Source: Betaproteobacteria bacterium (GTDB lineage: Bacteria; Pseudomonadota; Gammaproteobacteria; Burkholderiales; Burkholderiaceae_C). Taken from it: a DNA stretch of 64,000 nucleotides. Positions 1 through 11,583 of the stretch are shown piece by piece (within the stretch, counting starts at the first letter, position 1; each line of letters opens with the position of its first letter). The translations under genes were made by a program, and so were the position numbers. Below the pieces are notes generated by a model. The model was not told where the DNA came from, did no database searches, and worked only from the letters and a program-made list of their open reading frames with translations. The DNA lies in the NCBI GenBank assembly GCA_025356445.1, contig JANXSZ010000005.1:1-64000 (forward strand). Direction: 5' to 3'.

Positions 1-394
1 GTCGCGTCCATGCCCATTTTCGCCCCTTACAGCCGACACGCGCCTGAGCGAATCAGCGGGCATATGCTGCAGGGAAAATGGACAAATCGTTAAGATGAAC
101 GATAATTTCGCGCGCGGGCGACGCGAACCGGACGCTTCCCTTTCGCCCGCCCTTCGCCTAGTGTGCTTCCCGCGCATGCGCCGTCTTTACGACTTATCGC
201 GACGTTGCGCGCCCATAGCGTCGGGCAAACGCCTATACGGCCAAAGACGCCGCCATCCGAACCGCGCCTCTCGAATCCTTGAGCGCGACCCTTAGAGAAA
301 AACCCATGGGCTGTGCCGCCTTCGTTTCGATTTTGACCCTGCCAGCCGCCGCCGTCACCGGCCGCGCGGCCCATTCGGTCATGGCGACTTCCTG
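1..394. other. Left-edge stretch without a supportable gene
   Basis: Short frames are open on both strands, but none has a convincing ribosome binding site, a recognisable family pattern or a normal amino-acid composition. Most are rich in Arg, Gly and Ala, as expected from GC-rich non-coding DNA. A minus-strand frame starting near 380 would be divergent to the gene at 395 and cannot be fully excluded. I see no tRNA, transposase remnant or repeat array here. Confidence 0.5.
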
Positions 395-751
395 ATGCAG
401 GTACGTGCCCAGCAGAGCTTTCTTGCCGAACTTGAAATGGCTATTCAGCACCAGTTGCAACAGGCGGGCGCTAGACCAGTCCATACACTCAGCCTTGCAG
501 TTTTTGACGACCAACCAGACCTGTTTTTCGTCGAGGCCAACGGGCTCGTTCTGGCTTATGGGCGCGAGGAGGAAGCTACGCCATCAGATGACGGGGTGGA
601 CTTGGAGTGGCTAACTTGGACGGCTGCCTTGGCAAGACCCTGGCAAAACGAGGATACCCGTATGGGGTGGTTGCGCCGCGCAGAGACTGTTGCAGCGGGA
701 ACCGCCGCCCTTGTGGAAGCAGCGCGCGAAGCGATCCTCCGACGCATCTAG
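395..751 (+). CDS. Hypothetical protein, 118 aa
   Basis: I do not recognise a family. The product is a small acidic soluble protein with no signal peptide or membrane segment. Its N-terminus looks helical and Gln-rich, a middle part contains a VFDDQPDLFFVEANG stretch, and the C-terminal helix is Ala/Glu/Arg-rich. The composition is that of a real folded protein, unlike the other frames nearby. It ends at 749-751, and its TAG lies on the same CTAG tetranucleotide that supplies the stop of the opposing gene at 748. It lies upstream of a relic defence operon and may be plasmid or island cargo, which is inference from position only. Confidence 0.5.
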   Translation: MQVRAQQSFLAELEMAIQHQLQQAGARPVHTLSLAVFDDQPDLFFVEANGLVLAYGREEEATPSDDGVDLEWLTWTAALARPWQNEDTRMGWLRRAETVAAGTAALVEAAREAILRRI

Positions 752-1032
752 TCGGTCAGCAGGCCGTCAATAGAAATAGTTTCAGGTACTTCGAGTGCCG
801 CATATCCCCCGTCCAGAAAGCGGCACACCTGCACCGCAACCAATTCTGGCGGCAGCTGCGCATCGATCAGAGCAGACAACTCGGGGAAGACCTCGGCGGC
901 CTTGTCAGTGATGTTTTGGTACGCGCTGTACAGCATTGCACCTTCTGCGGTCGCGAAGGCTTCCAGGCATCGTTGCGCCGTTGCTGGCCCCAACAACAGG
1001 TAATCGGCACGCAGACGGGGAGAAAGAGACAT
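748..1032 (-). CDS. Hypothetical protein, 94 aa
   Basis: I do not recognise a family. The predicted product is a compact, mostly helical soluble protein without a signal peptide or membrane segment. It begins MSLSPRLRADYLLLGPATAQ and ends in an acidic stretch. It converges on the 118-residue gene, and the two stop codons share bases 749-750. Its 5' end faces the fused helicase gene, with about 120 bases between the two starts, so that spacer must hold promoters for both directions unless one is silent. Function unknown; my confidence rests on protein-like composition only. Confidence 0.5.
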   Translation of the reverse strand: MSLSPRLRADYLLLGPATAQRCLEAFATAEGAMLYSAYQNITDKAAEVFPELSALIDAQLPPELVAVQVCRFLDGGYAALEVPETISIDGLLTD

Positions 1033-1128
1033 GGTTTAGAGCTGCCCTTATGAGAGCCATGATGTTACCTGCCCTCCTACTGGCGTATTCCACCCCACTT
1101 GCAATTTCGGGCATGCGCTTGCTAGCTT

Positions 1129-1150
1129 GGTTCCTCAACTACAAGGAACC
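1129..1150 (+). promoter_or_regulatory. Perfect inverted repeat over the ribosome binding site of the fused helicase gene
   Basis: The 7-base arms ggttcct (1129-1135) and aggaacc (1144-1150) are exact reverse complements with an 8-base loop. The right arm contains the Shine-Dalgarno-like aagga, a few bases before the ATG at 1153. If folded in mRNA, the hairpin would hide the ribosome binding site. As DNA it could equally be an operator for a dimeric repressor, as is common upstream of autoregulated plasmid replication genes. The dyad is seen directly; either regulatory role is inference. Confidence 0.5.
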
Positions 1151-1152
1151 CT

Positions 1153-3579
1153 ATGGCATGGAAGCGCACAAAAAAATCAGTGGCAATTGAGGGGGCTGTC
1201 GCACCCCAGAAGAAGCGAGCAGCGAGACGACTTGCCATGGATGGCCTGGCCGAAGAGCCCGTCATCGATTACCTGGAACACGCCCCGGTGGCGCCGTTCA
1301 TCACTTTCACCGACGGCCTGTTCCAATCATTGGCAAAAGCAAACACCGCAGCACCGTTGAACGTCATCACGGGCTGGCGGCAAAAATCACCGCACTACAT
1401 CCGATTCCAAGGCCCCAATCAATTGGGCGTGGAAGAACAAGCCGTGCTCTTCTACTTATGCCAAAGGGCAACGCAATCGGGCACCCCCGTCAACAACCGC
1501 TTCAACGACTTGCGCAACCAGTTGGCGTTGGCCTATGAGGGCAACTCCTGGCAACTGGGCGAGAAGCTTCACACTGAAAAAAGCATTGAGACGATCTTCA
1601 ACCGGGCACAGGCTGCGTTCTCCAACTGGACAAAACTGCCGCCAGAAGCGCGCACCGCCAACGCCATATTGGGGGCCTTGGACTTCGACTTTTTCGAACT
1701 ACTGGACAGCGTAACCATCGCCCGATCCCGCAAGCACATCGAGACCTTCTACGACACGAAGGACATCGGCACCTTCCCCGAACGCCTGAAACCGCTGTCG
1801 TTCCAGTGCCCTCTGACCTTGCGCACAGATGTCATTGGCTTCAACGACATCTTCAATCAGCTATCACTTTTGAAACTCGCCGTCTATGCGCCTGTGGGCT
1901 ACATCTTGCCCAGCCGCATCAAAAAGTACGAAGACATGTACGACACCGAGGTGCCTAGCGGAGCCGGTAAGTTTAAGCAGGCCGACCGCGAGAAGAGCTT
2001 GCAGGCGTTGATGACCGTCAACCTGCTCAAACGACTGGAAAGCTCGGTGGCATCCTTCCGGCTCACCTTGCAGAGCCTGCAAAGCAACCACCAAAAAGCG
2101 CTGGCCCAGATAGCTGCATTCAAGCAAACCGGCCGTGCCAGGCCGTTCACCGACCAGGCATCCGTTTTTGAGGATGCCGACTTCGACGACGAAGAGCTGC
2201 CGGAGTTTGATGACACGGGCGAGAACAGCACGGGCGGCAAGGTCAAAATCGACTTGGCCGACATGGACTTGCCGTCTTGGGAATACGACCTGAGCGCCGA
2301 CCTGGGTGTGATTGATGGCCTCCTGGCCGAGATGGAAAAAATCTCCCCAGCGGACGACGCCAAGCTGCAACACCTCAAAGCCCAGATCGAGCACAAGCTG
2401 GCCAACCCCATCAATCCCGGCAACCGCAAGCTGCTGATATTCACGGCGTTCGCAGACACCGCCAACTACCTTTACGACAACCTGGCAGCTGGCCTATTCC
2501 AGGCCCATGGAATCCACACCGGCAAGGTTACGGGCACCACAGAGCCAAAAACCACGCTGCGGCTAGCCGCCAACCCGCGCCAAGGCATCGACTTCCAGAC
2601 CATGCTCACCCTCTTTGCGCCCCGCGCCAAAGAGAAGGCTCTGACGCTGCCCCACGAACCCGGCGAGATCGACGTGCTGATCGCCACAGACTGCATTTCC
2701 GAAGGCCAGAACTTGCAAGACTGCGACACCGTCATCAACTACGACATCCACTGGAACCCCGTGCGCATCATCCAGCGCTTTGGCCGGGTGGACCGCATTG
2801 GCTCGCCTAACGCGCGCATTCAGTTGGTCAACTATTGGCCCGACATCAGCCTGGACGAATACATCCGCCTCAAAGAGCGGGTGGAGAGCCGCATGATGAT
2901 GGCCGACCTTACGGCCACAGGCGATGACAACGTGCTGTCCGCGCAGTCCAACGACGTGGCCTACCGCAAAGAGCAACTGCGCCGTTTGCAAGAAGAAGTC
3001 ATCGAGATGGAAGACCTCAAAACAGGGGTGTCCATTACCGACCTCGGGCTCAACGACTTTCGCATGGACCTGTTGAACTACGTCAAAGCCCATGGCGACC
3101 TGTCCCGCCTGCCCAATGGCCTGCACGCCGTGGTGCCCGCCGATGCAGAAAAAAGCTTGCACCCCGGCGTGATTTTCACGCTACGCAACCGGCTACTCAG
3201 TGGCACGACCGGTGCAGTGGTGAAGCAGAAGAACCGGCTGCACCCCTACTACTTGGTGTACATCGGCATAGACGGCACCATCATTGCCGACCACACCGAA
3301 GTCAAGACGCTGCTGGACCTGGCCCGCAACGCCTGCAAAGGCCGCAGCGATCCAGTGCCCACCGCCTTTGAGCCCTTCAACGCAGCCACCAGCGATGGGC
3401 GCGAAATGACGGTGTATTCATCGCTGCTCGACCAGGCCATCCACTCCATGATCGAGCGCCAGCAAGAGCAAGACGTTGACAGCCTGTTCTCGCCGGGCAA
3501 AACCAGTGCCTTGGTGCACGACGTGGCAGGGCTAGAAGACTTCGAGCTAGTCAGCTTCCTCGTGGTGCAGCCTGCATGA
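1153..3579 (+). CDS. Chimeric ORF: replication-initiator-like N-terminus fused to the C-terminal half of an SNF2-type defence helicase
   Basis: Residues ~109-808 match the C-terminal part of the large SNF2/PLD-type helicases that accompany type III restriction-modification-like operons. Motif III (SGTPVNNRFNDL, from S109), motif V (IATDCISEGQNLQ, near 509) and motif VI (QRFGRVDRIGS, 541-551) are all visible. The Walker A (GxGKT) and DExH motifs, and the N-terminal PLD-like domain of these ~1100-residue proteins, are absent. Residues 1-108 instead carry HYIRFQGPNQLGVEEQAVL, which resembles the first winged-helix region of some plasmid replication initiators; that identification is from memory and tentative. 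The change occurs at about 1468-1482. The stop overlaps the next start (ATGA). Without motifs I and II, helicase activity is unlikely. Confidence 0.75.
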   Translation: MAWKRTKKSVAIEGAVAPQKKRAARRLAMDGLAEEPVIDYLEHAPVAPFITFTDGLFQSLAKANTAAPLNVITGWRQKSPHYIRFQGPNQLGVEEQAVLFYLCQRATQSGTPVNNRFNDLRNQLALAYEGNSWQLGEKLHTEKSIETIFNRAQAAFSNWTKLPPEARTANAILGALDFDFFELLDSVTIARSRKHIETFYDTKDIGTFPERLKPLSFQCPLTLRTDVIGFNDIFNQLSLLKLAVYAPVGYILPSRIKKYEDMYDTEVPSGAGKFKQADREKSLQALMTVNLLKRLESSVASFRLTLQSLQSNHQKALAQIAAFKQTGRARPFTDQASVFEDADFDDEELPEFDDTGENSTGGKVKIDLADMDLPSWEYDLSADLGVIDGLLAEMEKISPADDAKLQHLKAQIEHKLANPINPGNRKLLIFTAFADTANYLYDNLAAGLFQAHGIHTGKVTGTTEPKTTLRLAANPRQGIDFQTMLTLFAPRAKEKALTLPHEPGEIDVLIATDCISEGQNLQDCDTVINYDIHWNPVRIIQRFGRVDRIGSPNARIQLVNYWPDISLDEYIRLKERVESRMMMADLTATGDDNVLSAQSNDVAYRKEQLRRLQEEVIEMEDLKTGVSITDLGLNDFRMDLLNYVKAHGDLSRLPNGLHAVVPADAEKSLHPGVIFTLRNRLLSGTTGAVVKQKNRLHPYYLVYIGIDGTIIADHTEVKTLLDLARNACKGRSDPVPTAFEPFNAATSDGREMTVYSSLLDQAIHSMIERQQEQDVDSLFSPGKTSALVHDVAGLEDFELVSFLVVQPA

Positions 3580-4268
3580 CCCAGCCAACGACTGCGCCAA
3601 AGACTGGCCGCGCCCTGTTTGCCTGGCCCGCAAAAGCCGCAGTGTCCCGGCCCGTAACCAAGGCCAAAATTTACGCGCACGCCAAACCCACCGCCGCATT
3701 GCGCGCGCTGTTTGTGGAGCAGATCGACAGCATCACCTGGGCCTACAAGCTGGCCCCGGAAAGCATCAACCTGCCCGCCAAGCCAGACGTGCCCGAAATC
3801 GAGGTGTTTGAAATCGCCTTGAAGCTGCCGGATATCAGTCATTCGGTGCTGCGCTGCATCGACAAGGCCATTCCGTTTCCTATTCTGTTTGTTCTGCGGC
3901 TCGATGGCAAAAGCCGACCCATCGCCGCCTACAAACGCCCCAGCGAAGCCGCCAGCGGCCAGTGGGTGTTGGGCGACTACCATGCAGCGCCGTGGCAGCC
4001 GGACGACTTGCCCCGCCACGGCTTGCCCGTTGCACTGGATTTGCAAGGCCTGTACGAGCAACTATTGCGCCAGCACTTGGCGGTGCCCGCCCGGGCTGGC
4101 GAGACTTTGCGCGACCAACTGGATCGGTTGGCGCAGCTGGAAGCCAAGCAGGACGCAGCGGCCAGGCTGGAAACCCGGCTGGCGCAGGAAAAGCAGTTCA
4201 ACCGAAAAGTCGAAATCAATGCCCGGTTGCGTACCATTCGCAGCGAGCTACATGCGCTGGCCTCTTGA
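3576..4268 (+). CDS. DUF4391 domain-containing protein of a type III RM-like operon
   Basis: The 230-residue soluble protein has the layout I associate with DUF4391: an N-terminal part beginning after RALFAWP, a central stretch with FPILFVLRL, and a Glu/Gln/Arg-rich C-terminal coiled-coil segment (about 165-225). It follows the helicase with a 4-base ATGA overlap, so translational coupling is likely. DUF4391 genes usually sit between an SNF2-type helicase and a type III-like DNA methyltransferase, and the start of such a methyltransferase gene follows here. The biochemical role is unknown to me. This is the only gene of the relic operon that looks full-length. Confidence 0.8.
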   Translation: MTQPTTAPKTGRALFAWPAKAAVSRPVTKAKIYAHAKPTAALRALFVEQIDSITWAYKLAPESINLPAKPDVPEIEVFEIALKLPDISHSVLRCIDKAIPFPILFVLRLDGKSRPIAAYKRPSEAASGQWVLGDYHAAPWQPDDLPRHGLPVALDLQGLYEQLLRQHLAVPARAGETLRDQLDRLAQLEAKQDAAARLETRLAQEKQFNRKVEINARLRTIRSELHALAS

Positions 4269-4282
4269 ATGACCGGCGCCCC

Positions 4283-4340
4283 ATATTGCTACATATTTTA
4301 TAGCTACTAGCGCTTTACCAATAAGCGCTAGATGCCAATT
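4283..4340 (+). repeat. Dispersed dyad repeat between the DUF4391 gene and the mod start
   Basis: Bases 4307-4315 (ctagcgctt) and 4323-4331 (aagcgctag) form a perfect 9-base inverted repeat with a 7-base loop. It is preceded by attgctacat and tatagctact. The same tatagct..gcgctt layout recurs at 28253-28292 and, inverted, near 53576-53620, with degenerate relatives inside two genes. I recall this type as a common short intergenic repeat in Comamonadaceae genomes. There is no T-tract, so it is not a typical terminator. Confidence 0.65.
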
Positions 4341-4345
4341 TGACC

Positions 4346-5500
4346 ATGAATAAACTAAAAATGCACAGCCCCGACCTGACTCAGGCCAACATCGACAAGC
4401 TGGCGGAGCTTTTTCCGAACTGCCTGACCGAAACGCGTGGTGCCGATGGTGAGGTCAAGCGCAGCATCGACTTCGATCAGTTGCGGCAAGAACTGTCTAC
4501 CGTCCCTTACGATACCTTGGTGATCGCTGTAGGCAGTCAGACCAACGATTTTGGTACACCCGGCGTGAAAGAGCACGCCATTGCACTGGAAACGCCGCGC
4601 GAGGCTGATGTGTTCCACCGGCGCTTGGTCAATGCCTGTATCCGCGCCCATGCGCAGAGCACGCCTTTGCTGCCTCACCAACTGCGTGTCGCCATCATCG
4701 GTGCTGGCGCGACAGGGGTGGAGTTGTGCGCTGAGCTGCATAAAGCCACACGCACGTTGGTGTCGTATGGTCTGGACCGCATTGATCCGGAGCGCGATAT
4801 CAAACTGGTGCTGATTGAAGCGGGCCCGCGCATCTTGCCAGCCTTGCCTGAGCGTATTTCTAACGCGGCTCATGGCCTGTTGGGCGATTTGAATGTGCAG
4901 GTGCGCACTTCTGCCAAAGTGACAGCGGTGGTATCGCAAAACGGCATTACCAGTGTGCAACTGGCTGACGGACAAATCATTCCGTCCGAGTTGGTGGTTT
5001 GGGCTGCGGGAGTCAAAGCCCCCGAGTTTTTGCGTGATCTGGCGGGTTTGGAGACCAATCGCATCAACCAGCTGGTGGTTAAATCTACGCTGCAAACCAC
5101 GCGCGATGAATCAATTTTTGCGATAGGAGACTGCGCAGCTGTGCCTTGGTTGGGCCAGCCTGAAGGCACGACCACGCCACCACGCGCTCAAGCGGCGCAC
5201 CAGCACGCCAGCCATTTGGTCAAACAAATCCAGCGGCGTATGGCGGGTCAGCCGTTGACGGCATGGTACTACCGTGACTTTGGCTCGCTGATTTCGCTGG
5301 GTGAGTATTCCACCGTGGGCAATCTGATGGGGGGACTGATGAAGGGTTCGTTGTGGGTGGATGGGTTTTTTGCCCGTACGATGTACCTGTCGCTTTACAA
5401 AATGCACGAGGTGGCGCTGCATGGGTTTTGGAAGACCGGGTTGGGTTGGGCTTCGCGTTTGCTGACACGCCGCACCGAACCGCGGGTCAAATTGCATTGA
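4346..5500 (+). CDS. Chimeric ORF: type III Mod N-terminus fused to an NADH dehydrogenase (NDH-2) lacking its FAD domain start
   Basis: Residues 1-51 (MNKLKMHSPDLTQANIDKLA onward to FDQLRQELS) are the characteristic beginning of type III site-specific DNA methyltransferases. From about residue 52 (VPYDTLVIAVGSQTNDFGTP) the protein is a type II NADH:quinone dehydrogenase. It keeps the NADH-binding GAGATG (~119-124) and the second FAD motif FAIGDCAA (258-265). The first ~100 residues of NDH-2, with the N-terminal FAD GxGxxG, are missing, so FAD binding should fail. The join is near 4493-4501 and is in frame. ATG 4346 is preferred over an in-frame TTG at 4340 because it matches the Mod start. 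An expressed remnant or pseudogene is more likely than a working enzyme. Confidence 0.8.
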   Translation: MNKLKMHSPDLTQANIDKLAELFPNCLTETRGADGEVKRSIDFDQLRQELSTVPYDTLVIAVGSQTNDFGTPGVKEHAIALETPREADVFHRRLVNACIRAHAQSTPLLPHQLRVAIIGAGATGVELCAELHKATRTLVSYGLDRIDPERDIKLVLIEAGPRILPALPERISNAAHGLLGDLNVQVRTSAKVTAVVSQNGITSVQLADGQIIPSELVVWAAGVKAPEFLRDLAGLETNRINQLVVKSTLQTTRDESIFAIGDCAAVPWLGQPEGTTTPPRAQAAHQHASHLVKQIQRRMAGQPLTAWYYRDFGSLISLGEYSTVGNLMGGLMKGSLWVDGFFARTMYLSLYKMHEVALHGFWKTGLGWASRLLTRRTEPRVKLH

Positions 5501-8413: not shown

Positions 8414-9505
8414 TTAGCTCGCTTTTACTGTTGGTTTGGCAACGAATGCCTGTAGCTGGGCGCACAGGTCAGTCTGTTGCTGTAAATGCGCACGGCCTAC
8501 GAGAGCGAGGCTGTCTTGCCACAGTGCCTCTAAGGCTGGCAAAGCACCATCGCTCAGCCCATTCCAGGTGCGGTGCCACGCGCGCGCAGTGGGTGATGCG
8601 TCCAGCGTGTCGAGCAAGGCGTGCAGTTTGACATGGTGGGCATCGTCATCTTGCGGATAAATATGCCAAACAAAGGGTTTGCCTGCCCAAATGGCACGCA
8701 CCAAAGAGTCCTCGCCGCGCACAAAATTCAGGTCACAAGCCCACAGCAGATGGTCAAAATCAAGCTGGCTGAGTGTCGGTAAGTATGAAATTGATAGCTG
8801 TTCATGCTTATCTATATTGCCTAAAAAGGTGTTTTGAGTATGAATGGCTGCTTTGACTGCCTCTGTGGCTCGGCCCGCCGTCACCAGCAAATGCGTGCGC
8901 GCAGGGCCATGGGCCAGTTGGGCCAGCAGCGCTGGCAGAACGGAGGGTTCATAGCAGAACAGAGACACATAGCGCATGTGCTGTGCAGGCGACGTCATCA
9001 CCCCTGTTTTGGTGAGCCAGGCGTCGCGGTCAAACTGTATTTGGCGTGCGGCAAGCCCAGGTTCACGCAGCAGTCCGCCCGTGCGGGGGGTAAAGCCAGG
9101 GTAGAAGAAATGTTTGGTTAACCCCATGCCTGGCCCTTGAAACACGGGGGAGGGCAGGCCGTGGCAGTGCTCTGCATAGGGCTCTGCCGTCAGGTATTCC
9201 AGGTTGATCCAGGTCACACGGTGCGTTCGATGGCGCTTGGCCATGCGGGCCACAAACTCAAGTGACAAATCGCAGCCAAAGGCTTCAATAACGACATCAC
9301 CGGGTTCAGGCCATACGGTTGATGTTGCCCAAACCCGAACGTCGATTTGCTCGTGAGCCTCTGGCGCCATCCACGCCAGTGCGCTGGCATCGTCGACCCA
9401 CAGCCGCACTTGCGTGCCTTGTGCCGCTAAGTTGGTGCACAAGCGCCAGCACACGCCCAGATCACCGTAGTTGTCGATAACCTTGCAAAAAACATCCCAA
9501 ACCAT
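8414..9505 (-). CDS. earP: EF-P arginine rhamnosyltransferase EarP
   Basis: This is a GT-B inverting glycosyltransferase that moves L-rhamnose from dTDP-rhamnose to Arg32 of EF-P. The N-terminus has the family pattern VIDNYGDLGVCWRL, whose aspartates belong to the active site. The C-terminal domain has VRGEDSLVRAIWAGKPFVWH, the dTDP-rhamnose binding region. Its 363 residues are normal for the family. It sits just upstream of efp, the usual arrangement. A stretch near 8788-8825 (middle of the C-terminal half) resembles the dispersed dyad repeat of this genome. Confidence 0.95.
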   Translation of the reverse strand: MVWDVFCKVIDNYGDLGVCWRLCTNLAAQGTQVRLWVDDASALAWMAPEAHEQIDVRVWATSTVWPEPGDVVIEAFGCDLSLEFVARMAKRHRTHRVTWINLEYLTAEPYAEHCHGLPSPVFQGPGMGLTKHFFYPGFTPRTGGLLREPGLAARQIQFDRDAWLTKTGVMTSPAQHMRYVSLFCYEPSVLPALLAQLAHGPARTHLLVTAGRATEAVKAAIHTQNTFLGNIDKHEQLSISYLPTLSQLDFDHLLWACDLNFVRGEDSLVRAIWAGKPFVWHIYPQDDDAHHVKLHALLDTLDASPTARAWHRTWNGLSDGALPALEALWQDSLALVGRAHLQQQTDLCAQLQAFVAKPTVKAS

Positions 9506-9591: not shown

Positions 9592-11583
9592 ATGTCAGAC
9601 CCCACTTCCGTTGCGCATTCCGATCAATTGCTGAGTGAAGTCAGTGCCTTGCCCGGGCTGCCGGGCGTTTACCGCTATTTTGATGCAGAGGGTGGCGTGC
9701 TTTATGTGGGTAAGGCCAATAACCTGAAAAAGCGTGTCTCCAGCTACTTCCAGAAAAACCACGGTGGAACGCGCATCGGGCACATGGTCAGCAAAATTGT
9801 GCGCATGGAAACAACCGTGGTGCGCTCTGAGGCTGAAGCGCTGATTCTTGAAAACAACCTCATCAAGACGCTTAAACCCAAGTACAACATTTTGTTCAGG
9901 GATGACAAAAGCTACCCTTACCTCAAAATTACGGGTACCGAAGCACCTAAAGCCACCAATAACGCCGATACCAAACCAGGTGCATCGGTCTATGCCCGAG
10001 TCGCCCATTACCGGGGAGCGACTGAGAAAAAACACCATTATTTTGGTCCTTACCCCAGTGCCTGGGCGGTCAAAGAGTCTATTTTGTTGCTGCAAAAAGC
10101 GTTCAAGCTGCGCACCTGCGAGGACACAGTTTTTGCCAACCGCACGCGCCCCTGCTTGCTTTACCAGATCAAGCGCTGCTCGGGGCCTTGCGTTGGGCAT
10201 ATTTCCCCAGATACTTATGCGCATGATGTGGCCAATGCTGAGGCGTTTTTACGTGGTGACACCGATGAGGTGCTGGCGCAATTGCAAGACCGCATGATGG
10301 CGCACGCTGACAAGCTGGAGTTTGAGGTGGCTGCCGAGTTGCGTAACCAGATGAGTGCGCTTGCCAAAATTTTGCACCAGCAATCGGTGGAGACCACCTC
10401 GGACAAAGATGTGGATATTCTGGCCATCAAGTTGCAAGGTGGTCGAGCCTGCGTCAATTTGGCGATGGTGCGCGGTGGGCGGCATTTGGGCGACAGACCT
10501 TACTTTCCCGTGCACATTGAAGACGCCTCTGCGATGCTCGTCAAAGATGCAACCACCGTGACGGTGGCCGAAGAGATGGAAATCCAGGTGCTGGAGGCTT
10601 TTATCGCCCAGCACTATATCGGTATGGCACTGCCCGCTGTTTTGGTTGCCAGTCAGCCCATCAGTAAAGCGTTGGTCGATGCGTTGTGTGCTGACAGTGG
10701 TACCAAATTAACGGTGGTGCAGCAGCCGCATGATGTGCGGCGCATCTGGTTGGAAATGGCGCAAACCAATGCGGATATTCAATTGGCTCGCCTGTTGGCC
10801 GAGGAGGGCTCACAGCAAGCCCGTACCCGTGCCCTGGCTGAGGCGCTGGATTTGCTGATGGCGAACAGTCCTGAGGGCTTAGACCGGTTGCGTATCGAAT
10901 GCTTCGATATTTCGCACACAGCTGGTGAGGCGACGCAGGCTTCGTGCGTGGTTTTTCAGCACCACAAGATGCAAAGTGCTGAATACCGGCGTTACAAGAT
11001 TGAAGGTATCACACCCGGCGACGACTACGCCGCCATGCGCCAGGTACTGATGCGCCGCTACGGCAAGCTGGCCGAAGCCATGCGCGACGCGGCGGCGGTG
11101 GGGTTAAATGGGGGCGGCACGCCACGGGTTTCACATTTGCCAGACTTGGTGCTGGTGGACGGTGGCAAGGGCCAAGTGTCGATGGCGCGGGAAGTCTTTG
11201 TCAGTCTGGGTTTGGATTTGTCCTTGATTATTGGCGTGGAAAAAGGTGAGGGCCGCAAGGTGGGCCTGGAAGACCTGGTGTTTGCCGATGGCCGTGAGAA
11301 GGTCTACCTGGGGCGTGACTCTGCTGCCTTGATGTTGGTTGCTCAAATTCGCGATGAGGCGCATCGCTTTGCCATTACCGGGATGCGGGCGCAGCGCGCC
11401 AAGGTGCGGGTAGGGGGCAGCAAGCTGGAGGATATTCCTGGCATTGGCCCCAAGAAGCGTGCGCGTCTATTGCAGCGCTTTGGCGGGATACGGGGTGTCG
11501 CCGATGCTGGGGCTGAGGATCTTGCTACTGTTGAAGGGATTTCACGTGAGCTGGCCGACGAAATCTACCGAGCCTTACGCTAG
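9592..11583 (+). CDS. uvrC: Excinuclease ABC subunit C
   Basis: UvrC makes both incisions around DNA lesions in nucleotide excision repair with UvrA and UvrB. In order: an N-terminal GIY-YIG nuclease ([11 protein letters not shown]...[12 protein letters not shown], ~26-50), a Cys-rich segment ([17 protein letters not shown], ~190), a UVR domain that contacts UvrB ([14 protein letters not shown], ~244), an RNase H-like nuclease half ([20 protein letters not shown], ~520), and C-terminal helix-hairpin-helix repeats ([14 protein letters not shown]). Its 663 residues are slightly above the usual ~610, partly from loop insertions. It is followed closely by pgsA, a common pairing in proteobacteria. 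Confidence 0.97.

What the first reader, a model, noticed from the sequence alone, without database searches (positions are those of the whole stretch)
1153..3579. In-frame fusion of a replication-initiator-like N-terminus to a defence helicase C-terminal half
Seen: one 808-codon frame whose residues from S109 on match the C-terminal half of SNF2/PLD-type helicases, beginning exactly in motif III, while Walker A and DExH motifs are absent. Residues 1-108 are unrelated to that helicase family and carry the HYIRFQGPNQLGVEEQAV pattern that reminds me of plasmid replication initiators. The join at about 1468-1482 keeps the frame open. A deletion between an integrated plasmid rep gene and a helicase gene would explain it; a new functional chimera is the more exciting possibility.
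Basis: partly seen in the sequence, partly recalled or inferred. Interest (0 to 1): 0.75.

Follow-up and report, generated by a model that had tools for sequence, protein, structure and literature searches.

The report
Scar fusing two broken genes
A broken plasmid-replication gene is joined in frame to the back half of a defence helicase that has lost its ATP-binding motor half; a second such join lies 3 kb downstream, so this looks like wreckage of DNA rearrangement rather than a new working protein.

Summary
One open frame (1153-3579) joins about the first 109 residues of a RepC-type plasmid initiator (PF06504 kin) to the C-terminal half of a SNF2-type defence helicase (PADLOC 'HKD+Snf2'). 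The join lies at about 1479-1482, inside helicase motif III; Walker A and DExH are missing. In 58 of 58 other helicase loci readable across motif III the sequence is SATPVN (window: SGTPVN), with Walker A upstream, and no helicase locus matched the RepC part. Only DUF4391 between them is whole. So a 3-kb piece of a recurrent restriction-type operon sits between two truncated genes at the edge of core chromosome. The missing parts of the broken genes were not recognised in the assembly (the RepC search is weak). Best reading: a recent scar of illegitimate recombination, with a dead helicase. A functional chimera is unlikely. Both joins in frame is a 1-in-9 coincidence. No reads were available, so an assembly chimera is not excluded.

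The parts
1..1152 (.). Left flank up to the contig start: two small frames (395-751 +, 748-1032 -) without known family; no second copy in the assembly
1143..1147 (+). AAGGA, a Shine-Dalgarno-like site 5 bases before the ATG at 1153 (the rep gene's presumed own start)
   Evidence: read from the sequence
1153..1481 (+). N-terminal about 109 residues of a RepC-type (PF06504 kin) plasmid replication initiator
1479..1482 (+). Join 1, inside helicase motif III (SAT reads SGT)
1482..3579 (+). C-terminal 698-700 residues of a SNF2-type defence helicase (PADLOC C3a139), with Helicase_C; no Walker A or DExH
3576..4268 (+). DUF4391 protein, complete (profile 1-232 of 232)
4346..4498 (+). First 51 residues of a type III DNA methyltransferase (Mod)
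4496..4502 (+). Join 2, Mod to Ndh-like, in frame
4502..5500 (+). C-terminal 332 residues of an NADH-dehydrogenase-like flavoprotein (Pyr_redox_2 profile 93-291 of 291); N-terminal FAD-binding part missing

Best explanation
A scar of illegitimate DNA joining. A restriction-type defence operon (SNF2-type helicase, DUF4391, Mod, Res) and a RepC-carrying element lay at or came to the edge of core chromosome. Breakage and rejoining left only the 3.0 kb from helicase motif III to Mod codon 51, welded on the left to a truncated repC and on the right to a truncated ndh-like gene. Shown: the three-part mosaic in the assembly, both breakpoints, and that the frame stays open. Inferred: that two deletions (or one capture of a loose fragment) made it, that it is recent, and that the 808-residue product, if made from the rep start site, has no ATPase or helicase activity because RecA domain 1 is missing. 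The frame stays open at both joins by chance (one in three each).
For: The halves hit different families. 58 of 58 other helicase loci readable across motif III are SATPVN with Walker A upstream, and the RepC part matched no helicase locus at E up to 1. A second join of the same nature bounds the fragment. In annotated relatives helicase, DUF4391, Mod and Res stand together: 7 of 10 plasmid regions fetched show a DEAD/DEAH (Res-type) gene behind Mod. The missing pieces were not recognised in the assembly: Ndh N-terminus, rest of Mod, helicase N-half, RepC (a weak test). GC3 is 0.79 for the helicase half and 0.75 for DUF4391, against 0.60 (sd 0.05, range 0.49-0.68) in 22 downstream genes, which suggests a foreign middle piece. 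No decay yet: outside the join, 0 deviations at 102 columns invariant in 49 others, as expected of a recent event. 20 of 20 downstream frames scanned have Pfam families, mostly core functions.
Against: The helicase half and DUF4391 are undamaged, which is also what selection would give. Both joins are in frame (1 in 9 by chance). The codon-usage likelihood of the helicase half (-1.053), DUF4391 (-1.075) and Mod part (-1.035) lies inside the range of the 22 downstream genes (-1.257 to -1.024), so foreign origin rests on GC3 alone. Neither an empty site nor a parental arrangement was found. The assembly is a draft, so missing pieces could lie in unassembled, unbinned or withheld stretches. The RepC family search of the genome did not report even the window's own fragment, so other RepC pieces could escape it.
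Confidence: 0.7

Rival explanations
1. Assembly chimera: the contig wrongly joins rep, operon and ndh pieces from different molecules.
For: Two joins of unrelated genes lie within 4.5 kb of a contig start; that start has no second copy in the assembly, so it is a dead end or leads to an unheld contig. Contig ends sharing exactly 141 identical bases (3 pairs among the 61 stretches compared) suggest a de Bruijn assembler with k = 141, as often used for metagenomes (the MEGAHIT default is recalled, from no call).
Against: In such a graph a join of unrelated sequences needs reads across it, and coexisting true parents would be expected to break the contig at the join (inference). The contig runs straight through both joins, and no parental pieces were recognised in the assembly. 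Both joins keep the frame.
Confidence: 0.22
2. Functional chimera: the RepC N-terminus acts as a partner-binding or DNA-binding tether for the helicase C-terminal half and DUF4391.
For: Open frame, rep start with AAGGA, no decay of the helicase half, intact DUF4391.
Against: Walker A and DExH are absent, Mod is cut to 51 residues, no other case was found, the second join is equally destructive, and no sigma-70-like promoter was found at 700-1700 (a weak test).
Confidence: 0.05
3. A variant inside the best explanation (its odds overlap with it): one event rather than two, in which a 3-kb linear fragment of the operon was captured at a break between a rep-carrying element and ndh.
For: A single capture would explain both clean joins, and the GC3 of the middle piece (0.79, 0.75) is above both flanks (rep 0.63, ndh 0.65; the rep piece is short).
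Against: No donor copy of the operon was recognised in the genome, so the donor would be external or lost. Not separable from two deletions with the data at hand.
Confidence: 0.25

Closest known systems
SNF2-type defence helicase of PADLOC model C3a139 (HKD+Snf2), with DUF4391, type III Mod and Res
   Same: 698-700 C-terminal residues at up to 71% identity, complete DUF4391, Mod start, same gene order
   Different: Helicase lacks its first about 400 residues, Mod lacks all but 51, no Res follows
RepC replication initiator (PF06504)
   Same: About 109 N-terminal residues align with L028 and L029; 25 invariant columns in three sequences
   Different: The rest of RepC is absent, and the fragment alone scores below the PF06504 cut-off
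NDH-2-like NADH dehydrogenase (ndh)
   Same: 332 C-terminal residues, 67% identical to G005
   Different: The first about 120 residues (counted on L033) with the FAD-binding glycine motif are missing
[quoted passage not shown]
   Same: A passage in PMC12839542 (passages seen only) describes a similar effector fusion and an RM-like logic
   Different: Membership was not tested; the term DUF4391 does not occur in that paper (one search lists one other paper only)

Membership tests
RepC initiator (PF06504) | Pfam score over cut-off (22.8 bits) | tested here: not met
   13.4 bits, E 0.044, for residues 1-108; not listed for the 808-residue protein
RepC initiator (PF06504) | Homology of the fragment to a full RepC | tested here: met
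   33% to L028, 2e-11; L028 hits PF06504 at 7.8e-17
RepC initiator (PF06504) | Complete initiator with its C-terminal part and iterons nearby | tested here: not met
   Only the N-terminal part is present; no iteron-like array in 1-1600, only two-copy repeats
SNF2-type defence helicase (C3a139) | C-terminal RecA2 and following region | tested here: met
   8.9e-80, profile 352-948 of 948; invariant columns beyond the join intact
SNF2-type defence helicase (C3a139) | Walker A and DExH (RecA1) | tested here: not met
   Both absent; present in 58 and 57 of 58 other loci
SNF2-type defence helicase (C3a139) | N-terminal HKD nuclease domain | tested here: not met
   The whole N-terminal part is missing; even in full-length L004 Pfam lists no PLD domain at E up to 1, so the HKD label is PADLOC's only
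Type III restriction-modification operon | Complete Mod and Res | tested here: not met
   Mod cut at residue 51; rest of Mod not found in the assembly; no Res behind it; no genome-wide Res search was made
NDH-2-like dehydrogenase | N-terminal FAD-binding motif | tested here: not met
   Missing here; genome searched with G005's N-terminus, best 30% at E 0.001

The most novel reading that the evidence does not exclude
A natural gene fusion in which a plasmid-initiator N-terminus steers a motorless helicase C-terminal half and DUF4391, for example as a dominant-negative or origin-directed interference factor against RepC plasmids.
Probability: 0.04. Interest if true: 0.7.

Novelty: new member of a known kind. 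Interest (0 to 1): 0.2.

Why it matters
It shows that a long intact open frame with two good family matches can be a rearrangement scar, and that looking for a matching scar at the other end of the fragment is a quick check. If the join is real, it records a defence operon being dismantled at a chromosome/mobile-element boundary, with loss of a respiratory-type gene. If it were functional it would be a new plasmid-interference architecture.

Tried and rejected
A shared-offset similarity (678 bases) between 806-845 and 1484-1523 looked like a duplicated helicase start. Two alignments against 200 shuffles show nothing beyond chance: 90 shuffles reach the local score and 38 reach the score of the whole left flank against the helicase half.

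The only RepC-family hit in the genome (below cut-off, E 0.075) lies among what I take by eye for motility and chemotaxis genes (no family search) and was dropped as chance. That search did not report the window's own RepC fragment, so it is a weak test.

Iterons near rep: none seen. Plasmid records similar to the left flank, to one of its frames, or to residues 1-108: none. A scan of genome contigs with residues 1-108 found no relative. PDB relatives: none for RepC L028 (E up to 1); for the helicase half only short generic matches, 21 distinct sequences of RNA helicases and SNF2-type remodellers and the like. Structure prediction was not run: it could not decide between scar and function.

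Corrections: an earlier count said 4 contig-end pairs overlap by 141 bases; one search shows 3 such pairs (plus one of 190 bases at 99.5% and one of 908 bases at 81%).

Full report
Observation. The frame 1153-3579 (+) encodes 808 residues without a stop. It starts with ATG behind AAGGA at 1143-1147. Residues 109-808 match PADLOC C3a139 'HKD+Snf2' (8.9e-80, profile 352-948 of 948) and Pfam Helicase_C. Residues 1-108 hit only RepC in Pfam, weakly (13.4 bits, cut-off 22.8), and nothing in PADLOC, NCBIfam or, as residues 1-110, PHROGs. Two genomes gave useful relatives, G300 (locus L028) and G306 (L029); two further ones gave weaker matches (5 of 399 genomes of the family, the window's own included; 2 of 399 of the order, its own included). 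L028 is a full RepC (7.8e-17, profile 4-265 of 272) and aligns with the window fragment (33%, 2e-11; 25 invariant columns in three sequences). So the N-terminus is RepC by transitive homology, although it fails the Pfam cut-off on its own.

The join. I read motif III in every fetched locus, other than the window's own, whose match reached it at E up to 1e-30: 58 of 58 read SATPVN and have a Walker A pattern at the expected distance upstream; 57 of 58 have DExH (loci listed). Not among the 58: three partial loci (L082, L096, L098) and loci with weaker matches, such as L099 and L100. Some of the 58 are near-duplicates. The window reads RATQSGTPVNN and has neither motif. The join is therefore at about 1479-1482. 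In one search the RepC part matched, at E up to 1, only the window's own loci and L028, L029, L030 and L031. In the plasmid collection 484 records match the 808-residue query, 94 over at least 80% of it; of the 40 listed, 38 begin at residue 109 and two at 90 (the other 444 were not listed). In viral contigs 46 of 51 loci begin at 109; the three that begin at 78 or 90 have ordinary helicase sequence there and two are partial. Of 60 related genomes 57 have some helicase match, but only two match from residue 109 on to 807. A degenerate pattern for the joined peptide found nothing in viral contigs or genome contigs (the window's own record may be left out there).

The second join. Behind the helicase half lies a complete DUF4391 protein. 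The next frame (4340-5500) starts as a type III methyltransferase: 51-52 residues, 60% identical to the M. alcaliphilum Mod, PADLOC MTase_III 1.2e-10. It continues as the C-terminal 332 residues of an Ndh-like flavoprotein (Pyr_redox_2 93-291 of 291; 67% to G005; 6 of 12 genomes match at 1e-60 or better, the window's own included by the listing). Mod homologues continue with a different sequence after QELS, while the Ndh relative L034 reads TVPYDTLVIA where the window does. Join 2 is thus at about 4496-4502, also in frame.

What was lost. I fetched ten plasmid regions. Four show helicase, DUF4391, Mod and a DEAD/DEAH (Res-type) gene in a row (L040, L101, L103, L105). Three more have all this with changes: an extra gene (L039), an IS and an extra gene (L102), or an unnamed protein in place of DUF4391 (L106). 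L107 has an extra gene and an AAA ATPase behind Mod, cut by the end of the stretch. L104 is less clearly annotated and L038 has no annotation. In the window's own genome I found no N-terminal Ndh part (best 30%, E 0.001), no further Mod, no helicase N-half (best 31%, E 0.002) and no RepC over the cut-off (a weak test, since it did not report the window's own fragment either). Res was not searched for on its own.

Age and origin. At columns invariant in 49 other helicases (50 sequences after removing those at least 97% alike; loci under 43% identity or partial were dropped beforehand) the window deviates at 5 of 107, all at or before the join, and at 0 of the other 102. Among 23 sequences (the window and those at least 60% identical to it) it deviates at 12 of 269, six of them at the join; the others range from 0 to 17. 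So there is no sign of decay. GC3 is 0.79 (helicase half) and 0.75 (DUF4391) against 0.60, sd 0.05, in 22 downstream genes; rep 0.63, ndh 0.65. The codon-usage likelihood does not bear this out: helicase half, DUF4391, Mod, rep and ndh all lie in the range of the 22 genes, and only the frame 395-748 falls below it. Foreign origin of the middle piece thus rests on GC3 and on the nature of the genes. Twenty downstream frames scanned have ordinary Pfam families: EF-P, EarP, UvrC domains, SurE, 2-oxoglutarate dehydrogenase, histidyl-tRNA synthetase and others.

Is it real DNA? The window starts at the contig start (G000:C12, 76,084 bases). Three pairs of contig ends share exactly 141 identical bases, among 61 stretches compared (five of them read only N and one is internal), which suggests a de Bruijn assembly with k = 141. 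A join of unrelated genes in such an assembly should rest on reads that cross it, and the absence of recognised parental pieces and of contig breaks at the joins argues mildly that the joins dominate the sample (inference). The left 1,152 bases have no second copy in the assembly (only chance matches of 20-25 bases), so the left neighbour is unknown. Without reads an artefact remains possible (about 0.2).

Function. SF2 helicases need RecA1 (Walker A, DExH) and RecA2 together (established knowledge). The fused protein keeps only RecA2 and the following region, so it should not hydrolyse ATP. Mod and Ndh are likewise broken. That both joins keep the frame is expected in one of nine random pairs of joins. 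I therefore read the locus as a rearrangement scar and not a new working protein.

Literature. DUF4391 occurs in one paper of the held library (search listing only), so I saw no description there of this operon under that term. PMC12839542 (found; passages only) describes a BREX-related RM-like system with an HKD and Swi2/Snf2 effector. Whether the operon here belongs to it was not tested. The other searches, for bacterial gene fusions, PADLOC/HKD terms, assembly chimeras and RSF1010 RepC, were seen as listings with the start of the abstracts only and gave nothing used here.

Noticed in passing
4340-5500: Second in-frame fusion: type III Mod residues 1-51 joined to the C-terminal 332 residues of an Ndh-like protein.
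   Followed up: yes
window 1-1152: Contig start region with no second copy in the assembly; frames 395-751 (+) and 748-1032 (-) have no match in the Pfam, NCBIfam and PHROGs searches made.
   Followed up: partly
L039, L040, L101, L102, L103, L105, L106, L107: A recurrent operon of SNF2-type helicase, DUF4391 (an unnamed protein in L106), type III Mod and, in seven of the eight, a Res-type gene on plasmids of Pseudomonadota, Actinomycetota and Bacillota, sometimes with an extra gene; related helicases in 51 viral-contig loci. DUF4391 occurs in only one paper of the held library. Possibly worth its own study.
   Followed up: partly
L102:8747-10567: The start of Mod lies at 8747-8899, the annotated Mod begins at 10567 and an IS256-family transposase gene lies between: Mod is probably interrupted there.
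   Followed up: partly
G000 contig ends (L130/L146, L137/L159, L147/L150): Exact 141-base overlaps between contig ends, a likely trace of the assembler's k-mer size.
   Followed up: partly
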